Positions 1-64,000 of a stretch of DNA of 64,000 bases are shown piece by piece. The position numbers were made by a program, and so were the translations under genes. Origin of the DNA: Paratrimastix pyriformis. Its lineage: Eukaryota > Preaxostyla > Paratrimastigidae. Position 1 is the first letter of the stretch. Every line of letters starts with the position of its first letter. The notes below the pieces were generated by a model, which made no database searches, was not told where the DNA came from, and saw only the letters and a list, made by a program, of their open reading frames with translations. Where the stretch lies: positions 62,001 through 126,000 of the forward strand of contig JAPMOS010000049.1 of the NCBI GenBank assembly GCA_027972325.1, written 5' to 3'.

Positions 1-1536
1 AGGAGCGCGGCCTCACGAGTGGGAGTGGGTTCGAAGGTGGGACCGGGGGCCAGCTTCGAGCGCGCAGTGGGAAATCGGACGGGGGTTCAATGCCAATGCC
101 AAACAGACCTCAGAGGCAGAGAAGTAGAGCCATTGAGACAGAGGCATACCCTCCCTGTGCACAATCTTGACAACTTCCTTCGCTGCCAGGGCTCCGACCA
201 GGGCGGCCTGCAGAGGGTTCAGGGAATTGTCAGCAACCGCAGTCAGGCAAAAGACAGACGAGGGGAACCAAGGCGCCCCCGTTGGCAGCCGCCTCGAACT
301 GGTCGATGAGCTCCATGTGGGCTTCCAAGGCTTCTTGAGACAGTCGGACCGCGGGGTCGAGGCCCGAGTTGAGGGCAACAACCGCATCGATCGCACCGGT
401 CAGAGGCTGGCCCTGTGAACGGAAGGAGTTTGTAGGGGCGCATAGCGGCAAGAGTGGCTGACCTTGGCGCGAGCCTGGTCGATGGCCAGGAAGCACAGGT
501 GGAGCACCGTTGCGCGGACATCCGGAGAGGACGTGCCAGTGGCGACACCCTCCTCATCGGCCTGTGGCGCCGCGCCGGCGAGGGACAGGCGCGGTTTGGA
601 ACGTTGTTGTGCTAAGGAATCCTGCGGCCGTTAAAGTGGGAAGAGCCGCCGAGGGCAACCAGACCATACAGAGGACGGCAGTCTTTGGATGGCGCACCGC
701 GTAGCCATCGCAGGCATAGGTCCCATGCGTGCGCAAATCAATCGGAACAGTGAAAACGTCCGCGTCTAAAATTCCGCCAGAGTCAAAGAAAGCCGAAAAT
801 GGCAGCGGGACGGACTGAGGACTGTGACAGGGACGGGGGGTTGCCCGTTCAACTCGGAGACACCTTTTACCGAGACAAAGGAGACAAGGTCGCCGGTGTG
901 AAATCCGTGTGGGACAACAGTGGTAATTTCGGGTGGGTAGAGAGCCTGCAATCACGAAGGGGTCAAAAATGACGCGCACCAAAGACACCGACGGTCGCGA
1001 TGTTTGCGATGGCCTCGGTTTGCTGTCCTGTGAGAGCTTCCATGTTCCTTACTTCAAACCGCTTCCCAACATCAACAAAAATTCTGCCAAAGAGCCCAAA
1101 ACAATCCGCAATCACGAGCTGCTTGCCCACCTCGCGCAGATTCGCATCGAATTGTTCCATGTCGTCCACCAGGGAAAGATCTGATAAAACGATCGTCTAC
1201 GAGAAAATGTGGCCGCGTATGAAAAAGCAGGCTTGCCGGACGGAGAAGGGCTGAAGGGTGGCGATGCTGAGATTCGGAACAACTGAGGGCTGGCGGATGC
1301 ATGAAAAAATCCGAAGAAAACAAGAAAATACAAACCGTTGAACCAGTCAGACTCTGGAAAAAGGCCGCAAGCGCCGGCGCCCGCAATTGCGGGACCCCAT
1401 CTCCTGGGAAATGGTCGGTGTTTGGGTTGCTTGTGTGCGTATCATATAACCCCAATGGAACTCCTTTCAAGGCAAGGATCTTGGCAACCTCAAACCCGAC
1501 GTGTTCGAGCCCACAAACGAGTACTCTCGTTGACAT
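1..1536 (-). CDS. Ubiquitin-activating enzyme E1-like protein, N-terminal part (runs off left edge)
   Basis: Reading leftward from ATG 1536, the exons follow canonical E1 order. A Rossmann start (VLVCGLEHVGFEVAKILALKG, about 1527-1465) is followed by a segment with QLVIADCFGLFGRIFVDVG (about 1125-1065), matching the E1 stretch around LVVADTRGLFGQLF. Next comes an FCCH-type segment (HGFHTGDLVSFVSVKGVSELNG, about 915-850), then RATVLHLCFLAIDQARAK, and near 260-130 NPLQAALVGALAAKEVVKIVHREGMPLSQWLYF, matching the end of the inactive adenylation half. E1 enzymes adenylate ubiquitin or a ubiquitin-like protein and pass it to a catalytic cysteine; the active adenylation and cysteine domains would lie left of the window. 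The ATG sits directly before the Rossmann strand, so the usual 40-50 leading residues are missing, and the stretch 1200-1400 is hard to read as exon. The gene may be divergent, mis-assembled or decayed. A UBA1, UBA6 or UBA7 assignment is not possible. Confidence 0.72.
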
Positions 1537-1579
1537 AGTAGACCTGACAAGACCGGTGGAGCAGGCTATCTTCGGAACG
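1537..1579. promoter_or_regulatory. Bidirectional spacer between E1-like and EF-hand genes
   Basis: Only 43 bases separate the two divergent ATGs, so any shared promoter and both 5' leaders must be compressed here or overlap coding sequence. No recognisable TATA-like element is present. The call rests on gene arrangement alone. Confidence 0.4.
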
Positions 1580-1987
1580 ATGGGAAACTCTCCGAGCTTC
1601 CAACAACTGAAAAGGATTAACGAAAGGTTGGCACAGGATATTATCCCATCAAGTGAAGAAGTTCGGGCAATTTTCCAGCTTTATGATAAGTCGGGCGATG
1701 GAGTTTTGCAACGGGACGAGGGAATGGTTTTCTGTCGTCAAGTGATCGATCTGACCATACTACGCGTTCAAGAGAAAATGTCAGGTGAACTCGGACAAGC
1801 CATGGTCGATGAGTTACGCGCGAGAAAGGACCAATATGCCACGCAGGCCTTCAATCAAGGTGATTCGAGTAAAGACGGTCGTCGGTTCGGGCTGCAGATT
1901 TGGTGGGCTGATGGGTGTATTTTTTCCCCCCCAGGACTTCTACAATTCGATGAATTCTATCAAGCAATTCTTAATTTACGAAAATGA
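1580..1987 (+). CDS. EF-hand calcium-binding protein with N-myristoylation signal
   Basis: The exons are 1580-1877 and 1935-1987, giving 116 residues. The protein begins M-G-N-S-P-S, which fits the myristoylation rule (Gly2, Ser6), so membrane anchoring is likely. It carries two EF-hands. Loop 1 is DKSGDGVLQRDE, about residues 37-48. Loop 2, DSSKDGLLQFDE, is complete only after removing the 57-base intron 1878-1934, which splits the glycine codon; this fixes donor GTCGTC and a C-rich acceptor ending CCAG. Both loops have the canonical Asp at position 1 and Glu at 12, so both should bind calcium. The protein is shorter than calmodulin and has a single EF pair. The target is unknown; a membrane-tethered calcium sensor is the simplest reading. 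Confidence 0.85.
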   Translation: MGNSPSFQQLKRINERLAQDIIPSSEEVRAIFQLYDKSGDGVLQRDEGMVFCRQVIDLTILRVQEKMSGELGQAMVDELRARKDQYATQAFNQGDSSKDGRRFGLQIWWADGCIFSPPGLLQFDEFYQAILNLRK

Positions 1988-47100: not shown

Positions 47101-49496
47101 GCATCGCAGCGCACATCTTCACACCACAGCACTCCTGCACCGTCGCATCCGGCTGATGCTGGGGGGGATGGAATGGGGGATGGGATGGGGGATGTGCAGC
47201 CCGGGTGGGCCTGGAGCGGATCTCGAGCATCGCCACCCACGAGGCGGCCCTCGAGTCGGGCCTGGCCGACCTGGCGGCCCAGTGGCGCGAGGTCGCCTAT
47301 CGGATGCACATCCACGACGCGGCCGACCCGCTGCGGCTGATGGAGTTCGCGGGGGAGGACCCGCCCGCCGACCTGCCCGCCAGCCGGCAGGGCTTCATGC
47401 TGGGGGCCACGGACGAGGTGACGGCCCTGCTGGACGACTCGGAGCTGCAGCTCTCGGTGATGCTCTCGAGCCCATTCAAGGCCGTCATCCAGGCGGTCCG
47501 CACGGCCCTCACATCCATCCATCCATCCATCCATCCATCCATCCATCCATCCATCCAATCCATCCATCCATCCCATCATCCATCCATCCATCCATCCATC
47601 CATCCATCCATCCATCCATCCATCCATCCATCCATCCATCCATCCATCCATCCATCCATTCATCCGCCTGTCTATCCACCTGCCCACCCGCCTGCCCACT
47701 CGCCCCTCTGGACCTTTCCTCTGGGCCCGACACGATCTCACCTGTTACCATGCGGCGGTCACCACGAGGATTGATTCTTCTTTTCTCTGTTGCATGTGCC
47801 GTGGCGGGGGCGATGTGGGCGATGTGGGCGATGTGGGCGATGTGGGCGATGTGGGCGATGTGGGCGATGTGGGCGGGGCGGTGCAGGGGCTGGAGCTGTG
47901 GCAGCACAACCTGCTCCTGATCCGCAACACGACCCGCTGCCTGCTGGCCATCCAGCGGCTGTGGCTCTACCTGGAGCCCGTCTTCCGGTCCCACGAGATC
48001 GTCAAGGTCCGGCCCGCGTCCACCCACCCCACTCGCCAACAACCCCACCCACCACAACGCCCCCAATCACCAGCCCCCCGACCCCCCGTGCCTTTGGCGC
48101 GCAATCCATTGCAGGAGTCACTCACAGCCTATCGATTGGTGACCTGCGTCTGCCTGTGCTGTCTGACTGTCTTCCTGTGCCGCCGTGTCCGTCTGTGCTG
48201 TCTTCCTGTGTGGGGTGGGTGTGCAGTCGCTGCCGGAGGATGCGATGAAGTCCTTCGGGGCCATCAGCGAGGCCTGGCAGGCCCTCATGGCCGCCTTCTG
48301 GCAGCAGCGGGGCGTCTACGCACAGTGCTGCCTCCTGGTCCGCCCGGCGCTCTTTACTCCACACACGTCATCACACATCACATCAAATCACATCACATCA
48401 CCGCCTGCCCTGTCCTGCCCTGTCCTGTTCTGCAAGCATCATCATCTGCCGATCATCCCGTGCCCATCTCATTGGCTGCAACCTCGCTCGCCCCCCACTT
48501 CCCATCCCCTCCCAGGCCCGAGACGCCCCCGGACTGAGTCTGAACCTTCTCGGCGAGCTGAAGCGGCCCGATGTCGACCTGGGCACCCCGGGCGGCGAGA
48601 AGGGCATCTCGCCCCGCCTCCGGGGGCTCCTGCAGTGGGAGGCCGAGCTGGGCCGGGTGCTGGTGGCCCTGCAGCACTACCTGGACCTGAAGCGGGCCGG
48701 CTTCCCGCGGTTCTACTTCCTCTCCGACCAGGAGCTCATCGAGATGCTTGCCGCCTCGGCCTCGAGCCCCGTCCGTGCCGGGCGGCCTGCCCTTTCCTCC
48801 TGGGTGTTTGTGTGTGTGTGTGTGGGGGTGTGGGGGGCATGGCTAGGGTGAGAGGCATCATGAGCAGTATCATCATCATCATCCAACAATCATCCAACCG
48901 TCATCACCAGACACACCCAATCAACATCATCATCCAACCATCATCCTCAGCATCACCAAAACACACACGAGGCCCGACCAACTGATCCAACATCACCACC
49001 TGCTTCAGCCAACATCACCACCTACTTCAGCCTTTCCACATCGTCCCATGTTTCAATCATCACCATCATCATATGTGACTGGTGGTCGTCCGAGCCTCAC
49101 AGTGGTACCACCCTCCGCTCCCCCTTGTGGCCCCTGACCCCGCAGGCGCGGATGGACCGGCACCTGCCCAAGTGCTTCGAGGGCGTCGCGGGGCTGGTGA
49201 TGGGCCCCAAGGGCAGCCGCCGGTTCACCATCGCCGGGGTGACGGACCCCTGCGGGCTGCAGCTGACCTTCCGCGAGCCCCTCGAGGTTGCCGGCTCGCC
49301 CGAGCAGTGGCTCGAGAAGATGCGGCGCACCATCGCCGCCCAGCTGAAGCGCCTCTTCGGCGAGGCGCTGCGGGCCTACCCGGCCACACACCAGTCGCAC
49401 TACTCGGCCCTGCTCGCACGGACGGACGCCCTCGAGCAGGTGGGCCTCCCCGCATCGGCTTACGCGTCCGCCAAGACCCATCCTTGCATCCCTCCC

Positions 49497-49559
<63 letters not shown>

Positions 49560-52500
49560 TGACCGGCTTTATCCATGTTTTCCGCCTCACGGCGCGTGGT
49601 GGTGGGCGGCCACAGCAACGCGACCCTGGACCTGCCCGGGACGCCCATCGCCCCTATGACGCCATCCGCCGCCTACGGGGCCCCGCCCACCTCGCCCATG
49701 GGGGGCTCGCCCATGGCCGGGCTGGGGCTGGGCATGGGGCTGGGCATGGGGCCTGGGACCAGCTTCACCGCCACCGACGACGCCCTCAGGGAGAAATTCA
49801 CCTTCGACTACCCGCCCCAGGTCGGGGTCACGCCCGTGTGGAGGATGTCGACGCGGGTGGTGGGAGGAGGAGGAGGGGGGGGGGGGGGGGGGGAGGGGTA
49901 TGTCGGGAGAGGTGTGTTCCGCAGCGTGGAAGTCCGCACAATGGGGAGGCGAGCTGACCCGTGGTGGTGGCTGGGGGGCTGGCGGGCGGCGCAGGTTGTG
50001 CTTGTGCTGGAGCAGCTCTTCTTCGCCCTCCTCGTGGCCGCCACCCTCCGCGGGCCCCAGGCGCCCACCCCCTCGGCCGCCCACGGTCCGCCCGGCGCCC
50101 GCATCCACACACCCCCACAGCCCCGGCCTGCAAGGATGCTCAGACAGGGTGGGAGAGACACAATGAGAGCCCCGCTGATGGTGCCTGGCATGCGGTTGTC
50201 TGCAATGGAAGGCTTCCCGACTCCCGCCGCCGAACCGGCTGGTGGAGTGCCCGTCATCCCCCACCTCCCACTCACCATCTGTCTCCGTCTGTGGACCCAT
50301 TCCATTGGTCCTGCGACCATGCTGGTCCTGCTGTCCCGGGGTGATGCAGTCCTGTCCGTCTCGGGCGCCATGTCCCGCCAGCCCTCGGCCCTCCGCCGCA
50401 TCCGGCGCGGCATCGACGAGAACCTCGCCTGGCTCTCCGGTCCGTCCGCGCCCCCTTCAGCGCCCCCTTCAGCGCCCCTCCCATCTGGCCCTGATCCGCA
50501 TATCCGATGCCGCGTTCTCTCCCTCCGATCCCGGATGCGAACGCCTTGCCTCATTTGCATGCCTCCCTGTGCACGTCATCATCATCCAATCATCACCATC
50601 CAATCATCACCATCCAATCATCACCATCCAATCATCACCATCCACTTATCACCATCCACTTATCATCATCCAATTATCATCATCCAATTATCATCATCCA
50701 ATTATCATCATTGCCACCATCATCTGTGTTTGAATCACAAAGTGACGACTCGCAAAGAATCAAAACAACCTGTCTTGTTTGCCAGCGGCCCCCCAAGTTC
50801 GCATCAGCTCGATGGACGAGTCCCTTTGCCCCCGCACCAAATTTCCAGTTCTGGAGCGGCGTGCCGCACGCCCGCTGGCCGAGCGGGTTTTGCTGGGCTC
50901 GCTGATCACCCACGAGATCCACAACCGGGACGTCGTCGACGAGCTGCTGGCCGAGCTGCGCAGGATGGGCGGACCCGAGGCCGCCCCTCCGGTGGCGCCC
51001 ACGACCCCCACCGGGGCGGCGGCAGCGCCTGACTACTCCATCTCGGCCGCCCTGGGGCTGGCTGGCCCGCCCCACCAGTACCAACCGCAGTACCAGCAGC
51101 AACAGCAGCAGCAGCAGGGCAGCGCCGTGCTCGGGGCGCAGGACTTTGTCTGGCTGCGCCAGCTGAGGTCCGCCCCCCACCTCATCACCCCACCCCTTTG
51201 TCGGTGTTCGTGGTGGTCGATGCCTCCCCATTGACGATGTTCACGGTCGTATCCCTTTGGCGGCGGCGGTGGTGGTGACTGGTGGCTGGTGGCTGGTGGC
51301 TGGTGGCTGGTGGCTGGTGGCTGGTGGTGGTGGTTGGCGGGCGGTGGGGGGGCCGGGCAGGTACCACTGGGACAAGGACGAGGAGGACGTCCAGGTGCAG
51401 CAGGGCGCGGCCACGCTGCAGTACGGCTACGAGTACCTGGGCAACCCGGCCCGGCTGGTGGTGACCCCGCTGACGGTGCGCTGCTGGATGACCCTCACCA
51501 CGGCCCTCCACCTCAACCTGGCCGGGGCCGCCGAGGGCCCCGCGGGCACGGTCCGCTCTCGCCCGGCCCGCCGGCCCGCACCATCCTCCTTGTTCGCCCT
51601 GCCCAACTGGCGCGTGCGGCCAGTGGAGCCCCCCCGTTGGCCTCTGTTTTTCCCTAACGGTTCCCGTTCCGCGCTGCGCTGTGGGGAGGGCGAGGGGGAG
51701 GGGGAGGGGGAGGGGTGAGGGGCAATCATCAAGACATCACATCATCATTCCACCGCCATCATGTGCATCGGATGGGCGTGCGATCGGTGCAGGGCAAGAC
51801 GGAGTCCATCAAGGATTTGGCCCGCGCTGTGGGCCGGTTCTGCGTGGTCCGCCGCCGCCTCCTTCCGTCCCCCCTCCAGCCCCCCCCTCCACCACCTTCC
51901 AGCCCTCCAGCCACCCCCTCCACCACCTTACCTTCCGTCTCCCTACATCCCCCTACATCCCCCTACATCCCCCGTCACTGGGCCCAACCTGGTCTCACGT
52001 GCCTGGTGCTGTTGCGTTGGCGTTGCGGGATGTCTGCTGCGCAGGTTTACAACTGCGGGGAGGGCTTCGACTACAAGGTCATGGCCCAGTTCTTCACGGG
52101 CCTCCTGCAGGTCCGCCGCCGCGCCCATCCCTCCCCCGTGCCCGATCCAGCGCGACCCAATTCATTCACGGCCCACATTTGCATCGCTCCATCGCTGGCA
52201 TGACGCCTCACCAAGACATCCAGCCAGTCGGCCGGCTTCCCCCCGTCATCACCCGCATCCCCCTCGACATCACCACTGACTGAGCCATCGAACGGGTTGT
52301 GCTGGTGCTGTGCAGGGCGGCTGCTGGAGCAGCTTCGACGAGTTCAACCGGATCGGGGTGGAGGACCTCTCGGTGCTGGCCCAGCAGCTCTTCACCATCC
52401 AGGCGGCCATCGGGGCCCGCCGGGAGGGGGTCCTCTTCGAGGGCCGCCAGGTGCCCGTCGACCGGGGCTGCGGCTTCTTCGTCACGATGAACCCCCAGGC

Positions 52501-55500
52501 CGAGCCCGGCTACGCGGCCGGCAGGAACGAGCTGCCGGATAACCTCAAGGCCCGCCCCCTGAACCACCTCCATAACCCCGCATGCCTGCATAACCCCGCA
52601 TGCCTGCATAACCCCGCATGCCTGCATAACCCCGCATGCCTGCATAACCCACATGTCTACATATCCAGTTGCCTGAGAGCCGCTATGACTGCATAACCCC
52701 GCATGCCTGAGAGCCGCTATGTTTGAATGGCCACCCTCTCGGCATAACCCCCATTGCGTACTCCCCTCCCCTGTCGACACGCCCATGCCTGCACATCCAC
52801 TTCGCTCTTCTTCTCTGACCGCCAACGGGGCACGGGCTCCCCCCCGCTCTGCACACCAGGCGCTCTTCCGACCTGTGGCGATGGTGATCCCCGACAGCGG
52901 CCTCATCACCGAGGTGATGCTCTTCGCCCACGGGTTCGGCTCGGCCCACGGGCTGGCCCTCAAGCTGGTCCGGCCACCGGCCCAAGGATGGGATGCTGAT
53001 GTTGATTGGGTGATGATATGGCTGATGATTGGGTTGATTGGGTGGTGATGATGATTGACTTGCCCACATGCCCAACGACGGGCCTCCTCTTGCTGCGCAG
53101 GTTCGGCTCTTCGGGGCGGCCCCGCAGCAGCTCTCGAACCAGCATCACTACGACTTCAGCCTGCGCTCGCTGGTGACGGTCGTCCGGCTGGCGGGGCTGT
53201 ACTACGCCACCTACCTGGTCACAAAGCAGGTCCGTGCCATCAGTCAAACATCATCAGTCAAACATCATCAGTCAAACATCATCAGCCAAACATCATCAGC
53301 CAAACATCATCAGCTAAACATCATCAGCCAAACATCATCAGCCAAACATCATCAGCCAAACATCATCAGCCAAGCAGCAGCAGTCACAACAGCAGCAACA
53401 ACAACATTCAATCATTGTCCGATCATCACCATCATCCGATCCAACCAGCATCAGTATCATCATCATTCATCATCATCACAACCAACCCGCGTTTTCTCCC
53501 TGCCCGCCCTGATCTGCTGCCCCAGGAGAAGCAGCGTGCCGAGGCGGAGGCGGCGGCGGCCCTTGCCCGGGAGGAGGCCGAGAAGGCCGCCCTCGAGGAG
53601 AAATCCAAGTCCCGCAAGTCCCGCAAGAAGTCCGTCCCGCGCGCTCCTGCTTGCGGGCGCCCGTGCAGTGGATCCTGTTCGGGACGTGTCGCTCACTGTG
53701 GGCCCGCAATTTTTCTCTGCTTCCGGTTGCGCATGGAACTGCCTTGCATGCGGCGGTGTGCCTGCTGTTGTTGGGGTCTGGCTGGCTGGCTGGGGCGGCG
53801 CTGCAGGAAGCGGGATGAGGAGGAGCGTCGCAAGCAGCACGACGCCCTGGTGGCCGCCTGGAAGCAGCGACGCGATATGCATCAGCAGATGGTCGAGGAG
53901 CAGGTCCGGCCAGATGCCCCCGCCTGCCCGCCCTCGCGCCTCCCCAGAAGGAGCGAACACGATTTTGAAACAAGCAGGCAATCGCTCTTTTTCGCCCCCC
54001 AATCGAAATCGCCGTTTCAATATTTCGCCTTTTTTTTTCACTGCTCCCGCACACCCTCATCACCCGCTCCTTCCCTTCCCTGCGGTCGCGGCCTGTAGGA
54101 TCTGGTGCTGCGGGCCGTCGCCGACCAGGCGCTGCCCAAGTTCACCGGAGACGACACGACCCTGTTCACGGCCCTGATGGGCGACCTCTTCATGCCCATC
54201 CCGCCCTTCACCGAGTCCGCCCCCGGCGAGGGTGGCCGGTCGCGGACCCCTACGGCCTCCGAGACCTCGACCGCCGTGTCGCCCCTGCCGCCGACCCCCG
54301 CCAGCGGGAAGGTGACCTCGCCGCCGACATCCCCCCGGCCCGTCTCGCCCCCGCTCACGGCCGCTGGGACGAGCACGGCCGGCCGGTCGGCAGGGGTCTC
54401 GATGCGGGAGCTGGTCAACATGGTGGCCGCCCCGCTGGCCCGCTCTCGGAGCCAGTCGGTACTGGCCACGGCGGCCATGATCACCAACGCCGTCACCACG
54501 GCCCCCGCCACCCAGGAGATGGCCCTCAGGGCCCGGGAGGCCCTGCGCCAGATGGGCCTCTGCTGGCGCGAGAACGACTCGGGGACCCGAATGCAGGTCG
54601 ACAAGATCACCCAGCTCCACACGGCCCTGCAGGTGCGCTGGGGGGTCATCATCCTGGGGGCCGCCGGGGCGGGCAAGACCACCTGCGTGCGGGCCCTGGC
54701 CCGGGCCATCGGCATCAGCCTGGCCAGCATCACCTGGAACGTCCCGTCCACCGCCCCGGCCCCCGCCGCCAGCCCCGAGAAGAGGCCGCGCTGGGGCCGG
54801 CTCCGTAGCAAGCTGCTTGTCCCCTACCGGCCCGTGGTGACCCTGCCCCAGGCGCGGCCCTCGGCCCATGTGCTGGTGCACGTGATCAACCCCAAGGCCC
54901 TCACCCTGGGCCAGCTCTTCGGCCGGATGGACGAGGAGTCGCGCGAGTGGACCCCCGGCGTCCTGGGCACCCTCGTCCAGCAGGTCCGGCGTCCCGCCGC
55001 CCACCTCCCGATCCGCCTGCCCCGCCCCGCCCCGCCCGGGTGACCGCTCGCATCATCCAATCAGCATCATCAGCATCATCAGCATCATCAGCATCATCAG
55101 CATCATCAGCATCATCAGCATCATCAGCATCATCAGCATCATCAGCATCATCAGCATCATCAGCATCATCAGCATCATCAGCATCATCAGCATCATCAGC
55201 ATCATCCCGCATCATCAGCATCATCAGCATCATCAGCATCATCAGCATCATCAGCATCATCAGCATCATCAGCATCATCAGCAGCAGCATCATCAGCATC
55301 ATCATCATCACCATCATCACCATCAGCATCATCAGCACCATCAGCATCATCAGCACCAGCACCAGCCATCCACCACCCTCATCATTCGCCTGGGCGGTGC
55401 GGTTTTTGCGTCTGCTCCTGCAGGTTCTGAACGCCAACGAGGCCCAGCGTGCGAGCGAGGCCGCCCGGCAGGAGTCCCATGCGCGCGCCCTGGCCACCCG

Positions 55501-58500
55501 GGCCACGGCCGAGCAGCAGCTGGGGGAGGCCGTCCAGCGGCTGCTGCAGGACGAGATCGAGGCCGAGCGGATCCGGGAGCGGCGCAGGGCAGGCACGCTC
55601 ACCCTCGAGGAGGAGCAGCAGCTCGCGCAGGAGAAGCCTGTCCGCGCTCTGGCGCCGCCATGCCCCGCGCCCCGATGGCCCCCTCCTCCTCCTCCTCCTC
55701 TGCCCCACCCGCACTTCATCAACATCCCTTCGTCGTCCCGCGGTCTCGATTCTGTGGGATGATGGCGACTGGGTGCTGGCTATGCGATTGCGCCTCTGTC
55801 TGCATCTGTGCTGTCTCTGTCTCCGCCCGGCGTCTCTGTGCCCGCAGCTGGCCATGCTGACCTCGTCCAACCCCTACGAGGGCCCGCTGCGCAAGGCGCT
55901 TGCGGTCATGCAGGCGACGGCCTCCATCCTGATGGCCAGCACCCCCCAGGCCGCCCGTGCCGCCGCCGCGGCGGGCCAGTCGAACGCCCTCCTGCTCCTC
56001 ACCAAGGCGGCCGCCAGCAGCCCCCAGGAAGTCATCGCCTCGTTCGACCTGCCCCCGCTGCCCACCGTGCCGCCGCCCCCCCAGGCCGCCCTGCAGGTTG
56101 TGCACTGGGTGCTCTTCGACGGGCCCGTCGACGCGCAGTGGGTCGAGAACCTCAACAGCGCCATGGACGACACCCGCACCCTCAACATGCCCAACGGCCA
56201 GGTTCGCACACTGCCCGATGGACATCCCCCCCTCGCGGTCGTCATCGTCCAATCAGCATCATCCGCCACCACGTCATTGCACTCATTCCCTGTCCCCCCC
56301 CCCCCCCCCCCCCCAGCGTTTCCGGCTGCCTGTCAACCTGTCCTTCCTGTTCGAGGTGGACTCGCTCTCGGCTGCCTCGCCCGCGACCATCTCCCGATGC
56401 GGGGTGGTCTTCGTCCCCGGGGGCGGCGAGGCCCCCCAGACCCTCACGGCCAAGCTGGTGCCCCCGCCCATGCCCACGCCCATGTTTCTCGGCACCGTGG
56501 TGGGCACCCCGTCCGCTGCCGCCCTGGGCGGGGCGGGCCGGCGCGCCTCGGTCGTGTCCAATATGGAGCCCGAGGTGGCCACGGCCCCTCTGCCGGCCGT
56601 CCTGCTGGGCAACCCGGCCGCCGGGGCCGTCCCCAGCACTGCCTGTGGGCCGGCCTGCGTGCCCTGGTCGTGCTACGTGCGGGCCTGGCTGGGCATGACG
56701 GAGGGCGAGGAGGCCGAGGCACCTGAGTCCTGGATCTGCGACCGGGAGGCCTCGCTGCTGCTCGAGGGGCAGGGCCAGATCTACGGGGACGTCATGGACA
56801 AGGACCTCGAGACCTTTGACCCCACCAAGGGCGGGCCGTACCCCGGTCTGATGAGGATGAGGATGAAGGGACGATCGGATGAGGGTGATCGGATGTATGG
56901 TGGTGGCGGTGGTGGCGGCGATGATGATGGATGTTTGGACGATGGCCTCTCATCATTCCGTCCCTCCGGCCCCCTTTCCGGGTCGCCCCCCCTCACTCAG
57001 CGCCCGACCTGCTGCCCGTCCCGGCGACCCTGCCGCCCACGTACGTCAGCCAGAAGCCCCAGCCGGTGCTGTCTGTCGCCCGGATGCATCGCCAGCTGCG
57101 GCAGCGCCTGTGGAACCACATCTCGCGGGCCCTCGAGCTGGCCCTCAACTGGCTGGGGGGCGCCGAGCCCGACGAGTACCGGGGTCCGTGAGCGCTCCCC
57201 CCTCCCTCTGCCCGTTCCCCCGGCAGCAACGTGCTCACCAGACCGCGAGCGGCAGTGTGCGTGTGTCTGTGTCTATGTGTCTGTGTCTGTGTGTCTGTGT
57301 CTGTGTGTCTATGTGTCTGTGTCTGTGTCTATGTGTCTGTGTCTGTGTCTATGTGTCTGTGTCTGTGTCTGTGTGTCTGTGTCTGTGTGTCTGTGTCTGT
57401 GTGTCTGTGTCTGTGTCTGTGTCTGTGTCTGTATCTGTGTCTGTGTCTGTCTGTGTCTGTGTGTCTGTGTCTGTGTGTCTGTCTGTGTGTCTGTGTCTGT
57501 GTCTGTGTCTGTGTGTCTGTGTCTGTGTGTCTGTGTGTCTGTGTGTCTGTGTCTGTGTGTCTGTGTGTCTGTGTGTCTGTGTGTCTGTGTGTCTGTGTGT
57601 CTGTGTGTCTGTGTCTGTGTCTGTGTCTGTGTCTGTGTGTCTGTGTGTCTGTGTGTCTGTGTGTCTGTGTGTCTGTGTGTCTGTGTGTCTGTGTGTCTGT
57701 GTGTCTGTGTGTCTGTGTGTCTGTGTCTGTGTCTGTGTCTGTATCTGTGTGTCTGTGTGTCTGTGTGTCTGTGTGTCTGTGTGTCTGTGTGTCTGTGTGT
57801 CTGTGTGTCTGTGTCTGTGTGTCTGTGTCTGTGTCTGTGTCTGTGTCTGTGTCTGTGTCTGTGTCTGTGTCTGTGTCTGTGTCTGTGTCTGTGTCTGTGT
57901 GCGTGTTTGTGCCAGAGGAGTTGGACGCGCGCTTTGCCATCGCCCGCGCTCATCGATCACTCTTCTTCGGTGCTTCTCCTTGCCTTGCCACCACGTCAGC
58001 TCCGCGGAAGGGGCGGCCCAGCGAGCGGTCCTCCTCGGATGCGGGCCTGGACACGGCCGAGGTGCCCGCCGCCCGGCGGCATCCCAAGCTCAGCCACGAC
58101 CCCGGCGGGCTGGGCCGGGTGGCGGCCTTCTGCGCGATGCTCTCGTGCCTCCTCGAGCAGCAGGGGGCCGCCCTGGGCGGTGGCCTCCTTGAGCTGGGCC
58201 TCCCGCGGCGCCCAGGCGAGATGGTCGCCCACCCCCAGCCTCCTTCCCCGCTGCCCCTCATCGCGTCTTCCCCGCACGAATGCTTTGATGGGATGACTGG
58301 ATGATGATGATGATGATGATGGGATGATGGTGACGAGCCCGTCTTTCCCTCTCGACCCACCTCACGACCCGCCCGCCCGCCCCTCCCCGCCCAGGCGCCC
58401 TGCCCCCCCTCGACGAGCATCAAGCCGCTGCCGCTTGAGCAGCAGCTGCAGTACCAGCACCACATCGAGGCGGCCCTGGCCGAGGCCGGCGTCGCGACCC

Positions 58501-61500
58501 CCATCACGGCCGCCGGCGCCCGGACCCCCAAGACGCCGCCCGCCAAGGCCAAGGGCGCCGCCGCTAAGGGCGCCGCTGCCAAGGGCCCCAAGTTCCCCAC
58601 GATCAAGGTGCGGGCCGTTGTGGCCCTGACGACGCCGACCTCAGCCGCGGGCTCCAAGACCCCCAAGTCGGGCAAGCTCTCCGCCGCTGCACAGGCGGCC
58701 CAGGCGGCCCAGCAGGCGGCCCAGTCGGAGGCCCTCCGGTGGGCCTTTGATGCTCGCATGCAGCCCTGCGTGACGGTCTTCGGCGAGTATGACATGGATG
58801 TCTCCAAGAAGCATGTCCGTCCCGGCCCCGACCCCGCCCCACATGATAATTCGATTGTAACGATTGGGATGGATGATTGGGTGGTGGGTGGGTGGTGAGG
58901 GAGGAGACGTGGACGATGTTTGGGTGATGACGATTCTGGACGGATGGATGGATGATGACTGGATGATGATTGGATGGTGATGATGAGCATGGCGATGATG
59001 GCAACTGGATGACGATCCGGTGGCTCTGCCTCTCCCCCTCCGGACGGCAGGTTGTGGAGCGGATGGAGCGGCTGCTGGACCATGCCCTCCTGCTGAGCCT
59101 GGTCTGGGGCCTGGGCGGCTGCATCGAGGGGGCCGAGAGCCGCGACCTCTTCTGCGACCAGCTGGCCACCTGGCTGCCCAGCCTCAAGGTGCGCTACCCG
59201 ACGGGCGACGGTCCGCTGACAGGCCCCCACGCACCCCCCGCCTGCTCCACCCCCCGCCTCGTGCCCCGGACGGCTCACTCTTTCCGCCTCGATATCTCCT
59301 TGCCGGTGGGTGTGGCGCAGGCTCGCTGTTCGACTTTGCGCTCTTCCCCCGGCGGCCGCAGTACCTGCGTCACTTCGTGGCGGCCTGCCCGACCCTGCCC
59401 ACCCTGCCCATCCTCCGGGCCGGCCAGGCCACGCCCACCACCCCCATGGGGCCGCTCTCCCCCGAGGCCCTCGAGGGCCCGCCCCCTGCCCCCGAGCACA
59501 GCTACGCGTCCATCCTGCGGGCATGCGAGACCGCCACGGGCAGCGAGGAGAACGACCTGCAGTACGAGTGGCGCGCCTTCCTGGCCCTGGCCACGCCCCC
59601 CTTCGCGGCCCAGTCGGGCGCCGGGGCCAAGGCCCTGGCCGCCACGGGCCAGAAGGACCCCGCCGAGGTGGCCTTCCACGCCCACGTCGAGGCCTTCCAG
59701 CGCCTCCTGCGGCCCGTCTCGCGCACCGTCGCCATCCAAAGGTCCCGCGCCCCCTGCCCATCACGACATCTGCGCTGTTCCTCATGCGAAAACAGTGTTC
59801 CCCCGACTGCTGCCTGCCGTGCCCCCCCCCCCCCCCCCCCCCCCGGCCCCCTCTCACTCGCCGACCCTCGTCCTCGCATTGGGTTCTGTCACCCCGGCCC
59901 CCTCTCACTCGCCGACCCTCGTCCTCGCTTTGGGTTCTGTCACCCCCGGCCCCCTCTCACTCGCCGACCCTCATCCTCGCTTTGGGTTCTGCCACCCCGG
60001 GGATGGCGGATGGTGGATGCGCACAGCTCGCCCCTGACGGCCGCGCTGCACTTCCTGCTGCCTGCCCTGCTCTCGCGCGGGATGCACGTCCTCATCGACG
60101 CGCCCTGCGTGGGCAAGAGCCTGGCCGTCCGGGCCGAGCTGCACGAGTGGGGCAGCGCCCAGTGGGTGCCCGCCCATCTGCTCGACCTGCCCCCGCCCCC
60201 GGATGCGACCGGCCGGCGCAGCGGCGAGTGGCGACTGCACGGGCGACGAATGCAGCCCCAGCTGGCCCCGGCCATGGTCACCTTGGGCAGGTCGACGCCT
60301 CTGCAGGGGCCCGCCGGCGTCCAGGTCTGCTGCGGCCCTGGCCATCATCAGCCAAGCATCGTCTTCATTGCCGCGCCATCATCCAGCGTCATCACCATCA
60401 CCATCACACCATCACCATCCAATCATCATTCAGTCACCACCCAATCATCACCACCCGATCATCGTCAGCATCATCATCCAATCGCCACCAGGAGCATGAA
60501 CACCCAATCAGCATCATCCACATTCCACCGCGCCTCTTCTCACCGCCGGTGTCCGCGTCTCCCCAGACGGCCCTCTTTGCCCGGCTGGCGGCCCTGAACC
60601 CCAACAGCCACCCGGCCCCGGCCCTTGCGCCGCTACCCTACGGGACGCCCCTGTCTCACCTTCTGCCCAACCAGTACCACCACCCGGGCGAGGCGGCCTC
60701 GGGGGTGGCCGTCCCGGACATGGTGCGCACCCTGGCCCGGATCACCATGCCCGCGGCCATCCCCCTGGGGCCGCCCCACCCCCACTCGCTGGGCGGCTGC
60801 ATGCCCTTCTTCCTGGACGACTTCCAGTGCCCCGCACCCGACGAGCATGGCGTCCGGCCCATCCACGAGTGGGCCCGCTTCCTGGCCGAGTACAGCAAGT
60901 GCTGGGACTCGGAGCTGGGTCTCTGGCGGCAAATCGAGGGGGTCCGCCCGCCCCGGCCGCCCGCTGCGCAGCACTCGGGAAGGAGGGGATTGGCTGATGC
61001 ACACATTATGCTGTTCCGGCTGGGTTTTTCATCAGTGGTGCTGTTTCCTCATGAATGGTCTGGTCTGCACGGGGTGTCTGGGGGGGAGGGCAGGTGTCGC
61101 TTGTGGCTGCGGTGCGCTCGTCGAGCTCGGCGCCCGTCGGCATCTCGGCCCGCCTGACGCGGCACTTCCTCTGCCTGCACTTCGACGAGCTGTGCCCGGA
61201 CGGCCTGCGGTCCATCTTCCTGGCGCCCCTCGCCCTGCAGATCATGAGCGCAACCGGCGGCGAGCCCAATAAGTTCGAGGTCCGGCGCCCTCCCCGCGCC
61301 CACCGCCCCATCCTCCGCATATTTGCCTGCGTTTCGGCGTGCGATCTGCCTGCCTGCTGTCCGCTGTGCTCATTCTCCCCGTGGGCCCATCCACCTCCTC
61401 GGTGGGTCCCCTGCCCGTGGGCGCGCGCAGTCCTTCCGCCGGGCTGCCGATCTGTACCTGCAGTCGACCTTCCACCTGCTGACGGCCGTCCGCGGCTCGC

Positions 61501-64000
61501 TGCTGCCCATGCCGGCCACGCCCCACTACCACTTCAACCTGCGCGACCTGGGCCGGGTGCTGGAGGGCATCCTGGCTGCCTACCCGCCCCTCAAGCGGCC
61601 CGGCGCCGCGCTTGTCCGGACGCCCCTGCAGACCACCCTGACCGTCCCCGAGCCGGCCGGCCACGCGCCGGGCAGCCCCAAGGTGACCCCGCCCCGGACG
61701 CCAAAGTCACCCGGGTGCCTCGGTGAGGTCCGCATCCTGGCCGCGATCGTCCAGCACCCCCGCTCCTCCGCTTGCCCATCCCATCACATCCATCATCACA
61801 TCCATCATCACATTCATCATCACATCCATCATCACATTCATCATCACATTCATCACATCCATCTGCCATCCAATCCATCCATCCATCCATCCATCCATCC
61901 ATCCATCCATCCATCCATCCATCCATCCATCCATCCCTCCATCCATCCATCCCTCCATCCATCCATTCCATCTGTTCATCAACCTCCCTTCACCCCGTCC
62001 GGCCTCTTGGCGCAGCCCGACGGGCCCCGGTTCTCCCTGTGGGAGGACGAGACGATGCTCTCCCGGGACGCCATCACCCTGTGGGCCCACGAATGCCTCG
62101 TCCGTTCCTCGCTCCCCCGCCCCGCCCTTCCTATCCCTCTCCCTGTCTTGCCCCCCACGCTCACGAGAGGCTTCGCGACCCCGTTTTTTTTCCAGCGGGT
62201 CTTCGGGGACCGGCTGATCGACCGCTCCGACCAGCTGATCCTGGACGGGCTCATCCTGGACGAGGTCCGGGTCCGCTTCCGGCAGCCCGGCCTGGCCGAG
62301 GACCTCGACTCGGCCTCCTCCGGGGCCCCCATGACGCCCCTGGCCGACTCGCACGGCCCCGGGGAGGGCTTCCACACCCGGCCGCCCCTGGTCATCAAGG
62401 GGCGCGCCCTCAAGCGGCCCCCGCGGGAGCGCGAGCCCGAGGTGTCCACCCGGCTGGACCAGCTGCTCTACGCCGAGTGGCCCCTCGAGGGCCTCATGGG
62501 TCTGTTCGCCTCCTGTCCCACCCAGGCACTCGGCGTGACGATGATTGGATGATCAATGATTGATGTGATTTGGATGATGAGCGGATGATGGTGATGGTGC
62601 TGATTGGCTGATTGGTTGATGATGATCAGCCTCCCCAGCCCCAGCCCAACAAGAGGGCGGGGCAGCATGAGGTTCATTCCTGCTGTGTACCGCCTGGCTC
62701 TCGCCCCCCTCATCAGGCCGGACGACGGGCTACCGGCCCTTCGTGGTGGACGGCGGCTCGGTGGGGAGCCTGGCCCCGACCCTGACCGCCCTGGTCAAGT
62801 CCCGCCTGGGGGCACACGATGCCGGGGGCGCGGCCGAGGTGGACCGGATCGTCCTCTTCGAGGCGTTCATCTCCCAGCTGGCCCGCCTGCTCCGCATCCT
62901 GCGCCAGCCCGGCGGCCACGCCATGCTGTTCGGGGTCTCGGGTGTGGGCAAGCAGACCCTGGCCCGGATGGCCGCCCACGTGGCCGGGCTGAGCCTGTTC
63001 ACCAGCAGCGCCATGGGGCAGGTCGACCTGGGCCAGTTCCGGGAGGACCTCAAGCGGGTCGTCATGTGTGCCGGCGGGGGCAGCACACTCACCCCACAGC
63101 GCAAGAACACCCAAGGTCTGACACACAGCCAGAGACACGGATCGAAACAGACCCTGATGATCGGCGGCACAGACAGACACGGATCGAGACGGGATGAGGG
63201 CGCGCAAGATCACCCTAGGGCCGACGGCACGCCCTCACACATCGACAGATGCAGACACAGACAGGCAGACACAGACAGACAGACACAGGCAGATGGGCAG
63301 ATGGGCAGATGGGCAGATGGGCAGATGGGCAGATGGGCAGATGGGCAGATGGGCAGATGGGCAGATGGGCAGATGGACAGGCATGGACAGATGGACAGAC
63401 AGACAGGACCAAGACAGGACAGACAGACAGACGACCGGTCGCTGACCCCCACCCTGCCTGTCTGCTCTCCCGTGCTGCCGCCCGAGCAGAGCCGCACACC
63501 CCGGTCACGCCCGGCCCGGTGACGGAGAACGTGGCCGACCTGCTGCTGGGCGACGACCTCGAGGGGCGGCCCTGCATGCTGGTCCTGGCCGAGCAGCAGC
63601 TGGCCCACGAGCGGTTCCTCGAGGAGATCATGGCCCTCCTCAAGACAGGCTCCGTCCGTCCCGTGTCCCCTGCCCCCCCCCCCCCCCCCCTCTTCGAGGA
63701 GATCATGGCCCTCCTCAAGACAGGCTCCGTCCGTTGATCCTTGGCCTTGGCCGCCCTCATGTCGCCTCATCCCCGGCCCTCTTTGTCGCCCCCCATGCCC
63801 CTTGCCGCCCCCACATGTCCCCGCATGTTCCAACCCATCGTACCCCACCCTCTATCCCCCCCGTTCTCCGATCCCCGTGTCCCTGCGACCGGACAGCTTG
63901 GCGGGCTCTTCACGAAGGAGGAGGAGCAGATGGTGCTGCAGCACATGCGGCCCAGTCTCGAGAAGCACCTGGCCGTGCTTTACAGGCACCTCAAGTCGAG
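34500..64000 (+). CDS. Axonemal dynein heavy chain, N-terminus to AAA4 (runs off right edge)
   Basis: Dozens of exons give, in order: a Pro/Ser-rich N-terminus; tail segments typical of axonemal heavy chains ([52 protein letters not shown]); linker ([52 protein letters not shown]); AAA1 with P-loop GPAGTGKTES split by intron 51551-51792, SSFDEFNRI and [19 protein letters not shown]2 with [21 protein letters not shown] and [12 protein letters not shown]3 with DAPCVGKS and [12 protein letters not shown]4 with [15 protein letters not shown]. The stalk, AAA5 and AAA6 lie beyond the edge. It is the ATP-driven motor of ciliary arms; the tail resembles single-headed inner-arm types (DNAH3/6/7/12) but I cannot fix the class. 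Low-complexity and Lys/Glu-rich insertions enlarge it. One likely one-base error is near 44808. The start is chosen as the first ATG in the frame that splices on through 34941-35004. Confidence 0.93.
39165..39292 (+). repeat. 50-base tandem repeat in intron
   Basis: About 2.5 copies of a unit containing CGGCGCATGGCGCACATCAT and AGCACGTGAAGGTGACACAC, offset 50 bases. Confidence 0.88.
39586..39770 (+). repeat. CGCCCATC and CCACCAGC octamer arrays
   Basis: Two adjoining 8-base arrays fill the intron after exon end AAAHAA (donor GTCCGC). Confidence 0.92.
40418..40552 (+). repeat. TCTGTCTG array
   Basis: Repeats of CTGTCTGTCT in a dynein intron; the unit contains GTCTGT, identical to a common donor here. 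Confidence 0.92.
41475..41880 (-). mobile_element. Possible fossil of a pogo-like (DDE_1) DNA transposon
   Basis: This is an AT-richer island in a dynein intron surrounded by GC-rich sequence. On the minus strand, from about 41873, the frame reads [16 protein letters not shown], then [16 protein letters not shown]. The NMDQTP stretch resembles the catalytic-Asp motif (I-x-NMD-[EQ]-TP) of pogo/Tigger-type transposases, with a following T-x-x-x-G spacing. The frame is lost within about 60 codons and no terminal repeats were found. It could be chance or an unrelated protein fragment. Confidence 0.3.
42118..42345 (+). repeat. ATC/CATC microsatellite
   Basis: Mixed CATC and ATC units through most of a dynein intron (donor GTCTGT at about 42088, acceptor CTCAG at about 42353). 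Confidence 0.93.
44664..44690 (+). repeat. C-homopolymer before acceptor
   Basis: C run followed by ATCCCTCCCTCCCCAG, the 3' splice site of the exon [14 protein letters not shown]. Confidence 0.85.
44938..45108 (+). repeat. C tract and TGCTTGC heptamer array
   Basis: A run of about 20 C precedes about 16 copies of GCTTGCT, then a CTG-rich tail, in the dynein intron after TPDSLS. Confidence 0.93.
46885..47037 (+). repeat. GTTGGCGCT 9-base array
   Basis: About 16 units in the intron following KLNLDQ. Confidence 0.93.
47513..47662 (+). repeat. TCCA tetranucleotide array
   Basis: CATC/TCCA repeats in the intron whose far end holds the next array (47815-47878). Confidence 0.93.
47813..47878 (+). 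repeat. GATGTGGGC 9-base array
   Basis: About seven units ending 10 bases before the acceptor GTGCAG of exon GLELWQHN. Confidence 0.9.
49445..50330 (+). other. Poorly resolved dynein exons between linker end and AAA1
   Basis: Partial coding is likely at about 49600-49820 ([14 protein letters not shown], then [12 protein letters not shown]) and at about 49995-50095 ([18 protein letters not shown]). I could not place every junction. A candidate donor after DALEQ is GTGGGC, which would be an exception to the usual GTC rule. Confidence 0.4.
49498..49560 (+). repeat. CCTG tetranucleotide array
   Basis: About 14 CCTG units in the region after the exon ending DALEQ. Confidence 0.92.
50578..50712 (+). 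repeat. ATCATCACCATCC array
   Basis: 14-base and related ATC-rich units in the intron before exon AAPQVRISS. Confidence 0.9.
52550..52859 (+). other. GC-AG intron in dynein AAA1
   Basis: Donor GCCCGC after PDNLK, acceptor ACCAG before ALFRPVAM. Dynein AAA1 reads [14 protein letters not shown] without a gap, and no GT occurs at the join, so a GC donor is required. It differs from the common GTCCGC only at +2. Confidence 0.85.
52568..52652 (+). repeat. 18-base tandem repeat in the GC-AG intron
   Basis: CATAACCCCGCATGCCTG-type units, four to five copies starting about 18 bases after the GC donor. Confidence 0.85.
53238..53380 (+). repeat. 14-base AG(T/C)CAAACATCATC array
   Basis: About ten units beginning just downstream of donor GTCCGT at 53230. 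Confidence 0.9.
53530..53905 (+). other. Lys/Glu/Arg-rich insertion between AAA1 and AAA2
   Basis: Two exons ([18 protein letters not shown]... and [20 protein letters not shown]...) encode about 70 charged, probably helical residues between [10 protein letters not shown] and [15 protein letters not shown], where typical dyneins have only a short connection. Confidence 0.72.
55055..55375 (+). repeat. AGCATCATC 9-base array
   Basis: Over 30 units of CATCATCAG in the intron splitting AAA2 between TLVQQ and VLNANEAQ. Confidence 0.94.
56297..56315 (+). repeat. C-homopolymer directly before acceptor
   Basis: C run immediately followed by AG and the exon [14 protein letters not shown], the clearest poly-C pyrimidine tract in the window. 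Confidence 0.85.
57258..57905 (+). repeat. Long TGTGTC/TGTC array
   Basis: About 645 bases of GTCTGT, GTGTCT and similar units in a dynein intron (donor GTCCGT at about 57186). Every unit includes GTCTGT or a close match to the donor consensus. Confidence 0.95.
59824..59999 (+). repeat. C tract followed by 51-52-base minisatellite
   Basis: A run of C precedes three copies of a unit with CTCTCACTCGCCGACCCTC and TTTGGGTTCTG at 59845, 59896 and 59948. Confidence 0.9.
60000..61600 (+). other. Dynein AAA3 region
   Basis: P-loop-like [15 protein letters not shown] lies at about 60084-60128; the usual first glycine (GPxGxGKS) is Asp, while GKS is kept. Walker [19 protein letters not shown] is near 60808. 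Later segments [15 protein letters not shown] and [20 protein letters not shown] match the family. Confidence 0.82.
61785..61965 (+). repeat. CATCA and TCCA arrays
   Basis: CACATCCATCAT units pass into pure TCCA units in a dynein intron. Confidence 0.92.
63288..63385 (+). repeat. ATGGGCAG octamer array
   Basis: About 11 GCAGATGG units, flanked by GACAGACA units, in the intron within AAA4. Confidence 0.93.
63619..63734 (+). repeat. Duplicated exon end with its donor site
   Basis: A 41-base segment (63619-63659) coding [11 protein letters not shown] plus donor GTCCGT is repeated at 63694-63734, offset exactly 75 bases, separated by a C-rich stretch. Reading through adds 25 residues in frame. 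Confidence 0.9.

What the first reader, a model, noticed from the sequence alone, without database searches (positions are those of the whole stretch)
1..64000. Nearly all introns start with GTC (GTCCG/GTCTG): a donor with C at +3
Where homology or phase fixes the junction, donors read GTCCG, GTCTG, GTCGG or another GTC form. I placed more than 60 across eight genes on both strands. Examples: 1878 GTCGTC, 9358 GTCTGC, 10755 GTCTGG, 14803 GTCTGC, 24328 GTCTGG, 24832 GTCTGT, 33720 GTCTGT, 33834 GTCCGT, 51551 GTCCGC, 52111 GTCCGC. Standard U2 donors are GTRAGT, with a purine at +3 and A at +4; only +5 G is kept here. U1 snRNA nucleotide 6 (pseudouridine) normally faces +3. A consistent C predicts a G there, and a pyrimidine at +4 predicts a purine at U1 nucleotide 5. 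A shared rewiring of donor recognition in this lineage is the simplest reading. The one clear exception is 33446 GTTTGC.
Basis: partly seen in the sequence, partly recalled or inferred. Interest (0 to 1): 0.92.

Follow-up and report, generated by a model that had tools for sequence, protein, structure and literature searches.

The report
U1 snRNA rewired for GTC introns
In this unidentified eukaryote, 97 of 103 GT introns placed by protein homology begin with GTC instead of the usual GTA or GTG, and all eight U1 RNA genes found carry the matching two-letter change, so the intron start signal and the RNA that reads it have likely been rewritten together.

Summary
I placed 104 introns by protein homology with an aligner that has no preference at +3 (PRP8, tubulins, actins, five dynein loci, endonuclease IV). 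GT starts 103; 97 of these have C at +3 (T 5, A 1; C follows 32% of all GTs, p = 3e-40); +4 is C or T in 94 of 104, +5 is G in 97. All 17 PRP8 introns kept are GTC. All eight carry an upstream motif shared with U5 and U6. U6 is unchanged (4 of 4), so U1's first seven bases (AUACAGA) now equal U6's AUACAGA, and GUCUGU can pair fully with both. In passages I read, ACUUACC of U1 was invariant in 236 yeast and outgroup genomes (PMC10581693). This looks like a whole-genome compensatory rewiring of U1 and donors. RNA evidence, lineage and U1C remain open.

The parts
33194..33244 (+). endonuclease IV intron, donor GTCTGA
   Evidence: homology to 1qtw_A, (GT, GT+GC and free modes)
33446..33502 (+). 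endonuclease IV intron, donor GTTTGC (exception, T at +3)
   Evidence: GT, GT+GC and free modes
33720..33771 (+). endonuclease IV intron, donor GTCTGT (matches this genome's U1 at +1..+6)
   Evidence: placed in GT and GT+GC modes, not in the free mode, where 17 placeholder residues lie next to it
33834..33877 (+). endonuclease IV intron, donor GTCCGT
   Evidence: donor placed in GT and GT+GC modes, not in the free mode (same acceptor)
33972..34019 (+). endonuclease IV GC-AG intron, donor GCCTGT
   Evidence: GT+GC and free modes (score 561-562); in GT-only mode the aligner used 33983 GTATGG instead (score 540)
46853..47199 (+). dynein heavy chain intron, GTCCGC
   Evidence: 4 of 6 references
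47496..47886 (+). dynein intron, GTCCGC
   Evidence: 5 of 6
48007..48226 (+). dynein intron, GTCCGG
   Evidence: 6 of 6
48338..48602 (+). dynein intron, GTCCGC (acceptor uncertain, AAG)
   Evidence: 4 of 6
48771..49145 (+). dynein intron, GTCCGT
   Evidence: 4 of 6
49394..49948 (+). dynein intron, GTCGCA (weak, acceptor GAG)
   Evidence: 4 of 6
51168..51360 (+). dynein intron, GTCCGC
   Evidence: 5 of 6
   Evidence: 6 of 6
51847..52044 (+). dynein intron, GTCCGC
   Evidence: 6 of 6
   Evidence: 6 of 6
52655..52859 (+). dynein intron, GTCTAC (weak upstream anchor)
   Evidence: 4 of 6
52968..53100 (+). dynein intron, GTCCGG
   Evidence: 4 of 6
53230..54098 (+). dynein intron, GTCCGT
   Evidence: 5 of 6
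54741..54851 (+). dynein intron, GTCCCG (weak)
   Evidence: 4 of 6
56202..56316 (+). dynein intron, GTTCGC (exception, T at +3)
   Evidence: 6 of 6
61280..61430 (+). dynein intron, GTCCGG
   Evidence: 4 of 6
61614..62051 (+). dynein intron, GTCCGG (acceptor uncertain, GAG)
   Evidence: 4 of 6
62100..62195 (+). dynein intron, GTCCGT
   Evidence: 4 of 6
63058..63527 (+). dynein intron, GTCGTC (acceptor uncertain, GAG)
   Evidence: 6 of 6
63654..63896 (+). dynein intron, GTCCGT
   Evidence: 5 of 6

Best explanation
All eight U1 snRNA genes found in this genome begin AUACAGACC instead of AUACUUACC, and 97 of 103 homology-placed GT donors carry C at +3, so U1 is predicted to read donors here through a G6:C(+3) pair and, where +4 is U, an A5:U(+4) pair. 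Shown: the U1 genes, the donor composition, the complementarity (perfect donor AG|GUCUGUAU), the upstream motif shared by U1, U5 and U6 genes, and canonical U6 box, U5 loop and (2 copies looked at) U2 branch-binding sequence. Inferred: that these U1 genes are transcribed from the A of ATACAG, that they bind the donors, and that U1 and donors changed together by compensatory evolution. Inferred for the next step: U6, whose AUACAGA equals the new U1 5' end, takes over the donor and can pair at +3 through its G44 (numbering recalled), a Watson-Crick contact that A or G at +3 cannot make. +4 C (56 of 104) is an unpaired position with U1 A5, perhaps tolerated as the U-U mismatch at the same position is in yeast and Giardia; the high G+C content of the genome may favour C over U.
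For: U1: eight matches to RF00003 over model positions 1-166 (50.8 to 60.2 bits, E 2e-10 to 4e-13), 8 of 8 with ATACAGACCTTG; a pattern with nt 5, 6, 11 and 15 free and up to 3 mismatches gives the same 8 and 0 in the reversed control. CCCATAA motif at -59/-60 in 8 of 8 U1 genes, -52 to -54 in 7 of 7 U5 and -66/-67 in 4 of 4 U6. Fold stronger than shuffles, z = -3.4. Donors: 97 of 103 GT donors GTC; of all 104, +4 C or T 94, +5 G 97, -1 G 75%. In PRP8, allowing only GTC donors costs 7 to 21 points of about 9,650 against all GT donors, while allowing only GTA/GTG costs 1,503 to 1,561 (3 references). With the donor dinucleotide free, 16 of the 17 PRP8 introns recur with all 4 references and the other with 2 of 4. 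Purity rises with agreement: in the four other dynein loci, rows seen with at least 5 of 8 references are 41 of 42 GTC, rows seen with one are 52 of 98. Pairing over -3..+8 with this U1 exceeds that with canonical U1 in 75 of 104 donors, equals it in 25, is lower in 4; duplex energy is better in 89, equal in 2, worse in 13 (mean -8.25 against -4.29 kcal/mol). Spliced PRP8 is 2332 aa with no stop. U6 ACAGAGA 4 of 4, U5 loop 7 of 7, U2 GTAGTA in the 2 copies looked at of 9 full-length.
Against: No RNA data: neither junctions nor U1 transcription is observed. The U1 matches lie below Rfam's gathering score (69.5 bits). The unconstrained fold of U1 pairs nucleotides 4-8 (CAGAC) with GUUUG near the Sm site; protein binding would have to keep the 5' end free. 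+4 C, the commonest base, does not pair with A5. Random GTs in the window also favour the new U1 over the canonical one in 324 of 500 cases (means -4.91 and -3.74), so part of the energy difference is base composition. PRP8 models allowed only GC donors lose 646 to 732 points, less than GTR-only models, so the score test excludes GTR better than it isolates GTC. U1C was not identified: the only zf-U1 hit looks like a WBP4-type protein, though a short exon-split domain can be missed. METTL16 and SNRNP27K homologues are present, which in yeasts goes with +4 A rather than +4 U (PMC10581693). I placed 25, not 60, introns in the window, and the 20 dynein ones rest on divergent references.
Confidence: 0.9

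Rival explanations
1. The donor change is driven by U6, not U1: donors drifted to match the unchanged U6 ACAGA box (GUCUGU pairs at all of +2 to +6), and the U1 5' end followed later to avoid a clash at +3 and +4.
For: U1's first seven bases are identical to U6's AUACAGA. GTCTGT gives 5 Watson-Crick pairs with ACAGA at +2..+6, GTAAGT 3, yeast GTATGT 4. Entamoeba uses GUUUGU donors with no U1 found (PMC6018208, PMC13292270, passages read), and GTTTG is the commonest minority donor here after GTCGG/GTCAG (4 of 104 each).
Against: The commonest donor, GTCCG (50 of 104), has no Watson-Crick pair at +4 with U6 A43 or U1 A5, and the mean U6 pairing of observed donors is only 3.65 of 5. A METTL16 homologue is present, and m6A:U pairs are destabilising (PMC11732430).
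Confidence: 0.3
2. U1 plays little part in choosing donors here; the U1 change is drift after U1 lost its role, comparable to Cyanidioschyzon or Entamoeba where no U1 is found, and the donor motif reflects U6/U5/protein recognition only.
For: U1C was not identified. U1 is dispensable for splicing in some contexts (PMC11732430).
Against: Eight copies on eight contigs with identical first 26 bases, the stem I loop GAUCAC and the shared upstream motif are not decay; both altered bases match the donor change.
Confidence: 0.06
3. Artefact: the GTC pattern comes from base composition or from misplaced junctions with GTR donors a few bases away.
For: The window is G+C rich and C follows 32% of GTs; motif counts alone are weak; one-reference dynein rows include many GTG donors.
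Against: Tubulin and PRP8 junctions have up to 10 of 10 identical residues on both sides and nearly all stay when any donor dinucleotide is allowed; GTR-only PRP8 models lose about 1,500 points; the independently found U1 change matches.
Confidence: 0.01

Closest known systems
Standard U2-type donor recognition by U1 (AUACUUACCUG with CAG|GURAGU)
   Same: GT-AG introns, -1 G and +5 G kept, a U1 5' end complementary to the exon-intron border, canonical U6 box, U5 loop and U2 branch-binding sequence
   Different: U1 nt 5-6 are AG instead of UU (and nt 11 U instead of G); donors are GUCYG instead of GURAG
Saccharomycotina +4 A/U switches (PMC10581693, passages read)
   Same: lineage-level change of donor preference at +4 with invariant U6 ACAGA
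   Different: there ACUUACC of U1 was invariant in the 227 of 230 yeasts and 9 of 10 outgroups in which U1 was found, and the paper names a U1 position-5 change to A as a possible compensation that it did not find; here position 5 is A. METTL16 and SNRNP27K homologues are present here
Entamoeba histolytica GUUUGU donors (PMC6018208, PMC13292270, passages read)
   Same: pyrimidine at +3, high complementarity to U6 ACAGA; the minority GTTTG donors here are the same motif
   Different: no U1 snRNA is reported in Entamoeba; here eight changed U1 genes exist
Alternative U1 of the diplonemid S. specki (PMC12621601, passages read)
   Same: U1 with a changed 5' end
   Different: there one of two U1 genes has a run of C and the other is canonical; here all eight copies found share one change that matches nearly all placed donors
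Larvacean F. borealis non-canonical introns (PMC13326754, passages read)
   Same: genome-wide departure from the donor consensus
   Different: U1 5' end strictly preserved there; divergent U2AF and m6A changes proposed instead
Aureococcus and Micromonas (PMC3033335, passages read)
   Same: G+C-rich protist genomes with unusual donors (GC-AG)
   Different: their U1 5' ends are exactly AUACUUACCUG

Membership tests
U1 snRNA (RF00003) | full-length match of sequence and structure | tested here: met
   8 matches over model positions 1-166, E 2e-10 to 4e-13
U1 snRNA (RF00003) | score above Rfam gathering cut-off (69.5) | tested here: not met
   50.8-60.2 bits; a curation threshold, not a biological feature
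U1 snRNA (RF00003) | canonical 5' end AUACUUACCUG | tested here: not met
   AUACAGACCUUG in 8 of 8; it is therefore filed as a U1 variant with a replaced recognition sequence
U1 snRNA (RF00003) | snRNA-type promoter shared with other snRNA genes | tested here: met
   CCCATAA at -59/-60 in 8 of 8, also before U5 and U6; that it is a promoter element is inferred
U1 snRNA (RF00003) | transcribed, capped, bound by U1-70K/U1A/U1C and Sm proteins | not testable with these tools
   no RNA or protein data
U1 snRNP | U1C gene present | tested here: inconclusive
   only one zf-U1 hit, WBP4-like
U2-type GT-AG introns | GT and AG ends | tested here: met
   103 of 104 GT, 1 GC; the AG end is required by the aligner and so not tested; GT is required in part of the runs, free
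U2-type GT-AG introns | GURAG donor consensus | tested here: not met
   +3 C 97 of 103 GT donors; +4 C or T 94 and +5 G 97 of 104
U2-type GT-AG introns | major-spliceosome snRNAs with canonical active-site motifs | tested here: met
   U6 ACAGAGA 4 of 4, U5 loop 7 of 7; U2 GTAGTA in 2 of 2 looked at; U4 not searched
U12-type introns | RTATCCTT donor | tested here: not met
   none of the 104 donors begins GTATC; AT donors were open only in free mode; motif recalled; U11/U12 snRNAs not searched

The most novel reading that the evidence does not exclude
One guide read twice: the U1 5' end has taken on the U6 sequence AUACAGA, by conversion from U6 or by convergence, so that U1 and U6 test the same donor letters with the same seven-base guide. 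Donor choice and catalytic docking would then no longer be two different readings of the 5' splice site but one repeated reading, a state not seen in any spliceosome I found described.
Probability: 0.3. Interest if true: 0.96.

Novelty: new variant of a known kind. Interest (0 to 1): 0.92.

Why it matters
The U1 recognition sequence is treated as nearly frozen across eukaryotes. A survey that looked for donor changes compensated by U1 changes did not find them (PMC10581693, passages read), and PMC10599564 (passages read) cites an earlier study that could not clearly show such a correlation. Here both partners have changed, which makes three open questions testable: how a change in a global code with many sites can be crossed, how much U1 and U6 each constrain +3 and +4, and whether the two pseudouridines usual at U1 positions 5 and 6 are needed. 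A practical point: gene finders trained on GTRAG would be expected to miss most donors in this genome and its relatives; this was not tested.

Tried and rejected
Lineage: the SSU rRNA family search failed seven times with a busy message and was left. The listed PRP8 hits (120 of 3227, 120 of 3229) show no close relative: the best full-coverage identity of the 372-residue exon is 85%, the highest over the full protein among 39 references compared is 79% (P0058, unnamed EukProt entry), and the row sits on a long branch (0.56) in an open fork. Motif counting in the raw window was too weak to decide. A whole-genome donor count was not possible. Loss of METTL16 or SNRNP27K as cause of the +4 change was considered and not supported: both homologues are present. 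Misplaced GTR introns were rejected. Phage, plasmid, viral and prokaryotic collections were not searched.

Rows dropped before the count of 104. PRP8: the N-terminal intron at C456:81847 (GTTCGT; donor seen with 3 of 5 references, acceptor not agreed) and two one-reference rows (81235 GTGGCG, 81266 GTCTGA) in GT mode; free mode added several one-reference rows with other dinucleotides near the N-terminus. Tubulins/actins: 54 rows in GT mode, of which 27 were kept, 5 (all GTC) came from near-identical gene copies, and 22 failed the rule (at least 5 of 10 identical residues on both sides, unchanged in free mode); these 22 have +3 C 17, T 3, G 2. Four dynein loci: 167 GT-mode rows; 45 were seen with at least 4 of 8 references (44 GTC, 1 GTA); 35 were kept by the rule of at least 5 of 8 in GT mode and 4 of 8 in free mode. 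Free mode gave 39 rows with at least 4 of 8: 36 GTC, 1 GTA and two others, ACC and TCA. Window dynein: 184 rows, 20 kept with at least 4 of 6 references; the 146 one-reference rows have +3 C 76, G 52, T 13, A 5 and are taken as alignment noise; no free mode was run.

Full report
The question was whether nearly all introns of this window begin GTC and whether that reflects changed donor recognition. The window lies in a 56.06 Mb, 495-contig assembly that can be searched.

Donors. I wrote a spliced protein-to-DNA aligner that requires AG at the acceptor and, at the donor, either GT (no preference after it) or any two bases ('free'). PRP8 was chosen because it is highly conserved. Against five PRP8 references in GT mode, 17 introns recur in at least four (for one reference, for four), and all 17 are GTC (GTCCG 11, GTCTG 5, GTCGG 1). 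In free mode 16 of the 17 recur with all four references tried and the other with two of four. Allowing only GTC costs 7 to 21 points of about 9,650; allowing only GTA or GTG costs 1,503 to 1,561; allowing only GC costs 646 to 732 (three references). The spliced protein has 2332 residues and no stop, and is 75-79% identical to other eukaryotes' PRP8 over more than 2,200 residues. In tubulins and actin relatives, 24 of 27 kept donors are GTC and 3 are GTT. In four other dynein loci, 34 of 35 are GTC and one is GTACG. In the window, 19 of 20 dynein introns are GTC and one is GTT; endonuclease IV has GTCTGA, GTTTGC, GTCTGT, GTCCGT and a GC-AG intron GCCTGT (with GT donors only, the aligner used a worse-scoring GTATGG in place of the GC donor). 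Pooled: 104 introns, 103 GT; among the GT donors +3 C 97, T 5, A 1, G 0; among all 104, +4 C 56, T 38, G 6, A 4; +5 G 97; +6 C 44%, T 42%; -1 G 75%; -2 A 44%. C follows 32.2% of GTs in the same DNA (p = 2.6e-40). The window dynein references are distant (34-47% identity in the searched part), so these 20 are the weakest part, and four of them have doubtful acceptors. Agreement between references sharpens the pattern: one-reference rows are 76 of 146 +3 C in the window dynein and 52 of 98 in the other dyneins; rows with at least four of six, or at least five of eight, are 19 of 20 and 41 of 42.

U1. A covariance search of the genome found eight U1 genes, each matched over the whole model. All eight start ATACAGACCTTG where the Rfam consensus has ATACTTACCTGG. 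A separate pattern search with nucleotides 5, 6, 11 and 15 left free and three mismatches allowed found exactly these eight, with identical first 26 bases, and none in the reversed control. No canonical U1 was seen, though the covariance search scored only 41 of 992 first-look candidates. All eight genes have a CCCATAA motif 59 or 60 bases before ATACAG; the seven U5 genes have it at -52 to -54 and the four U6 genes at -66/-67. This supports real snRNA genes that start at ATACAG. The loop GAUCAC of stem I is present, and the fold is stronger than shuffles (z = -3.4), although the unconstrained fold ties up nucleotides 4-8 with GUUUG near the Sm site.

Fit between the two. With this U1, donor position +3 faces G6 and +4 faces A5. 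The ideal donor is AG|GUCUGUAU. Observed donors pair better over -3..+8 with this U1 than with canonical U1 in 75 of 104 cases, equally in 25, worse in 4. Computed duplex energies agree (better in 89, equal in 2, worse in 13; mean -8.25 against -4.29 kcal/mol); random GTs also lean the same way (324 of 500), more weakly, so the base-pair count and the +3 composition are the cleaner evidence. +4 C, the commonest base, is a mismatch with A5. Giardia and yeast are described with a U-U mismatch at the same relative position (PMC3510501, passages read), so one weak position at +4 is not unusual. GTCC introns are longer than GTCT introns (p = 0.005, 54 and 33 introns), so +4 may follow base composition or mark two classes.

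Rest of the spliceosome. U6 is unchanged: GATACAGAGA in 4 of 4 genes. U5 loop CGCCTTTTACT is present in 7 of 7; U2 has GTAGTA in the two copies looked at, of nine full-length. U4 was not searched. A METTL16 homologue with the MCNPPFF motif and a SNRNP27K homologue with RQYMNRKG are present, and the latter's own gene reads by eye as having donors GTCTGC and GTCGGG. U1C was not identified: the only zf-U1 hit reads like WBP4 (naming by recalled sequence features).

How it most likely works. U1 with A5 G6 meets the donor GUCYG through G6:C(+3), A7:U(+2), C8:G(+1), C9:G(-1) and C4:G(+5). The donor is then passed to U6. Because U1 now begins AUACAGA and U6 contains AUACAGA, a GUCUGU donor can make the same pairs twice: five Watson-Crick pairs at +2..+6 with U6 ACAGA, against three for GTAAGT and four for yeast GTATGT. 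The identity of the two guides is a sequence fact; that it matters is inference. By my estimate two changed bases would match U6 by chance about one time in nine to sixteen, so the identity alone proves little.

Comparison with print. I searched the paper library and found no report of a genome-wide U1 5' end replacement or of GTC donors. I saw only listings (25 of 160 papers, all of 2, 3, 1, 15 and 1, 12 of 23, 15 of 160, 12 of 61) and passages of nine papers. One search covered the letters AUACAGACC/ATACAGACC; none of the 15 titles listed is about snRNA. In passages read: PMC10581693 found ACUUACC of U1 invariant in the 227 of 230 Saccharomycotina and 9 of 10 outgroups in which U1 was found, and states that a change at U1 position 5 to A could compensate +4 U but was not found; PMC3033335 reports AUACUUACCUG in Aureococcus and Micromonas; PMC13326754 reports a strictly preserved U1 5' end in F. 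borealis; PMC12621601 reports one alternative, C-run U1 beside a canonical one in a diplonemid; PMC6018208 and PMC13292270 report no U1 in Entamoeba, the first also GUUUGU donors; PMC10599564 and PMC11732430 give background. The library holds open-licence papers only, so absence there is not proof.

Limits. No RNA evidence; lineage unknown; one genome; 104 introns of a total I did not estimate; window coverage 25 introns in two genes. Within these limits the two independent observations, donors and U1, agree at +3 fully and at +4 for the U donors, which is why confidence is high.

Noticed in passing
G000 snRNA loci L001-L019, 52-67 bases upstream of each gene: U1, U5 and U6 genes share a motif near GTCCCATAATTTTTCC at class-specific distances; it resembles the plant upstream sequence element RTCCCACATCG (recalled). 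At least two U6 loci (L010, L011) also have a TATA-like TTATAA.
   Followed up: partly
33972-34019: A GC-AG intron whose donor GCCTGT otherwise matches this genome's U1 at +1 and +3 to +6.
   Followed up: partly
104 introns, position +4: Introns starting GTCC are longer than those starting GTCT (p = 0.005) and richer in G+C just after the donor (0.72 against 0.59, no test); possibly two donor classes or a composition effect.
   Followed up: partly
G000:C86:24809-24916 (L063): The only zf-U1 domain found reads as a WBP4-like protein; U1C itself was not identified. Its gene seems to hold a GTCCGT intron (read by eye).
   Followed up: partly
1-3000, minus strand: A gene resembling ubiquitin-activating enzyme E1 (FCCH domain; UBA1/UBA7 matches), broken over several exons.
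   Followed up: no
12590-13240, plus strand: Armadillo repeats (Arm above its cut-off, ARMC5 model below).
   Followed up: no
33000-34110, plus strand: An endonuclease IV (Nfo/APN1-type) gene with five introns of 44-57 bases.
   Followed up: yes
G000:C35, C112, C474: Tubulin genes occur as near-identical copies on one contig: alpha at C35:73 kb (-) and 149 kb (+), beta at C112:1058 kb (+) and 1079 kb (-), beta at C474:423 and 579 kb (both -). In the C474 pair the same first intron begins GTCAGC in one copy and GTTTGT in the other.
   Followed up: no
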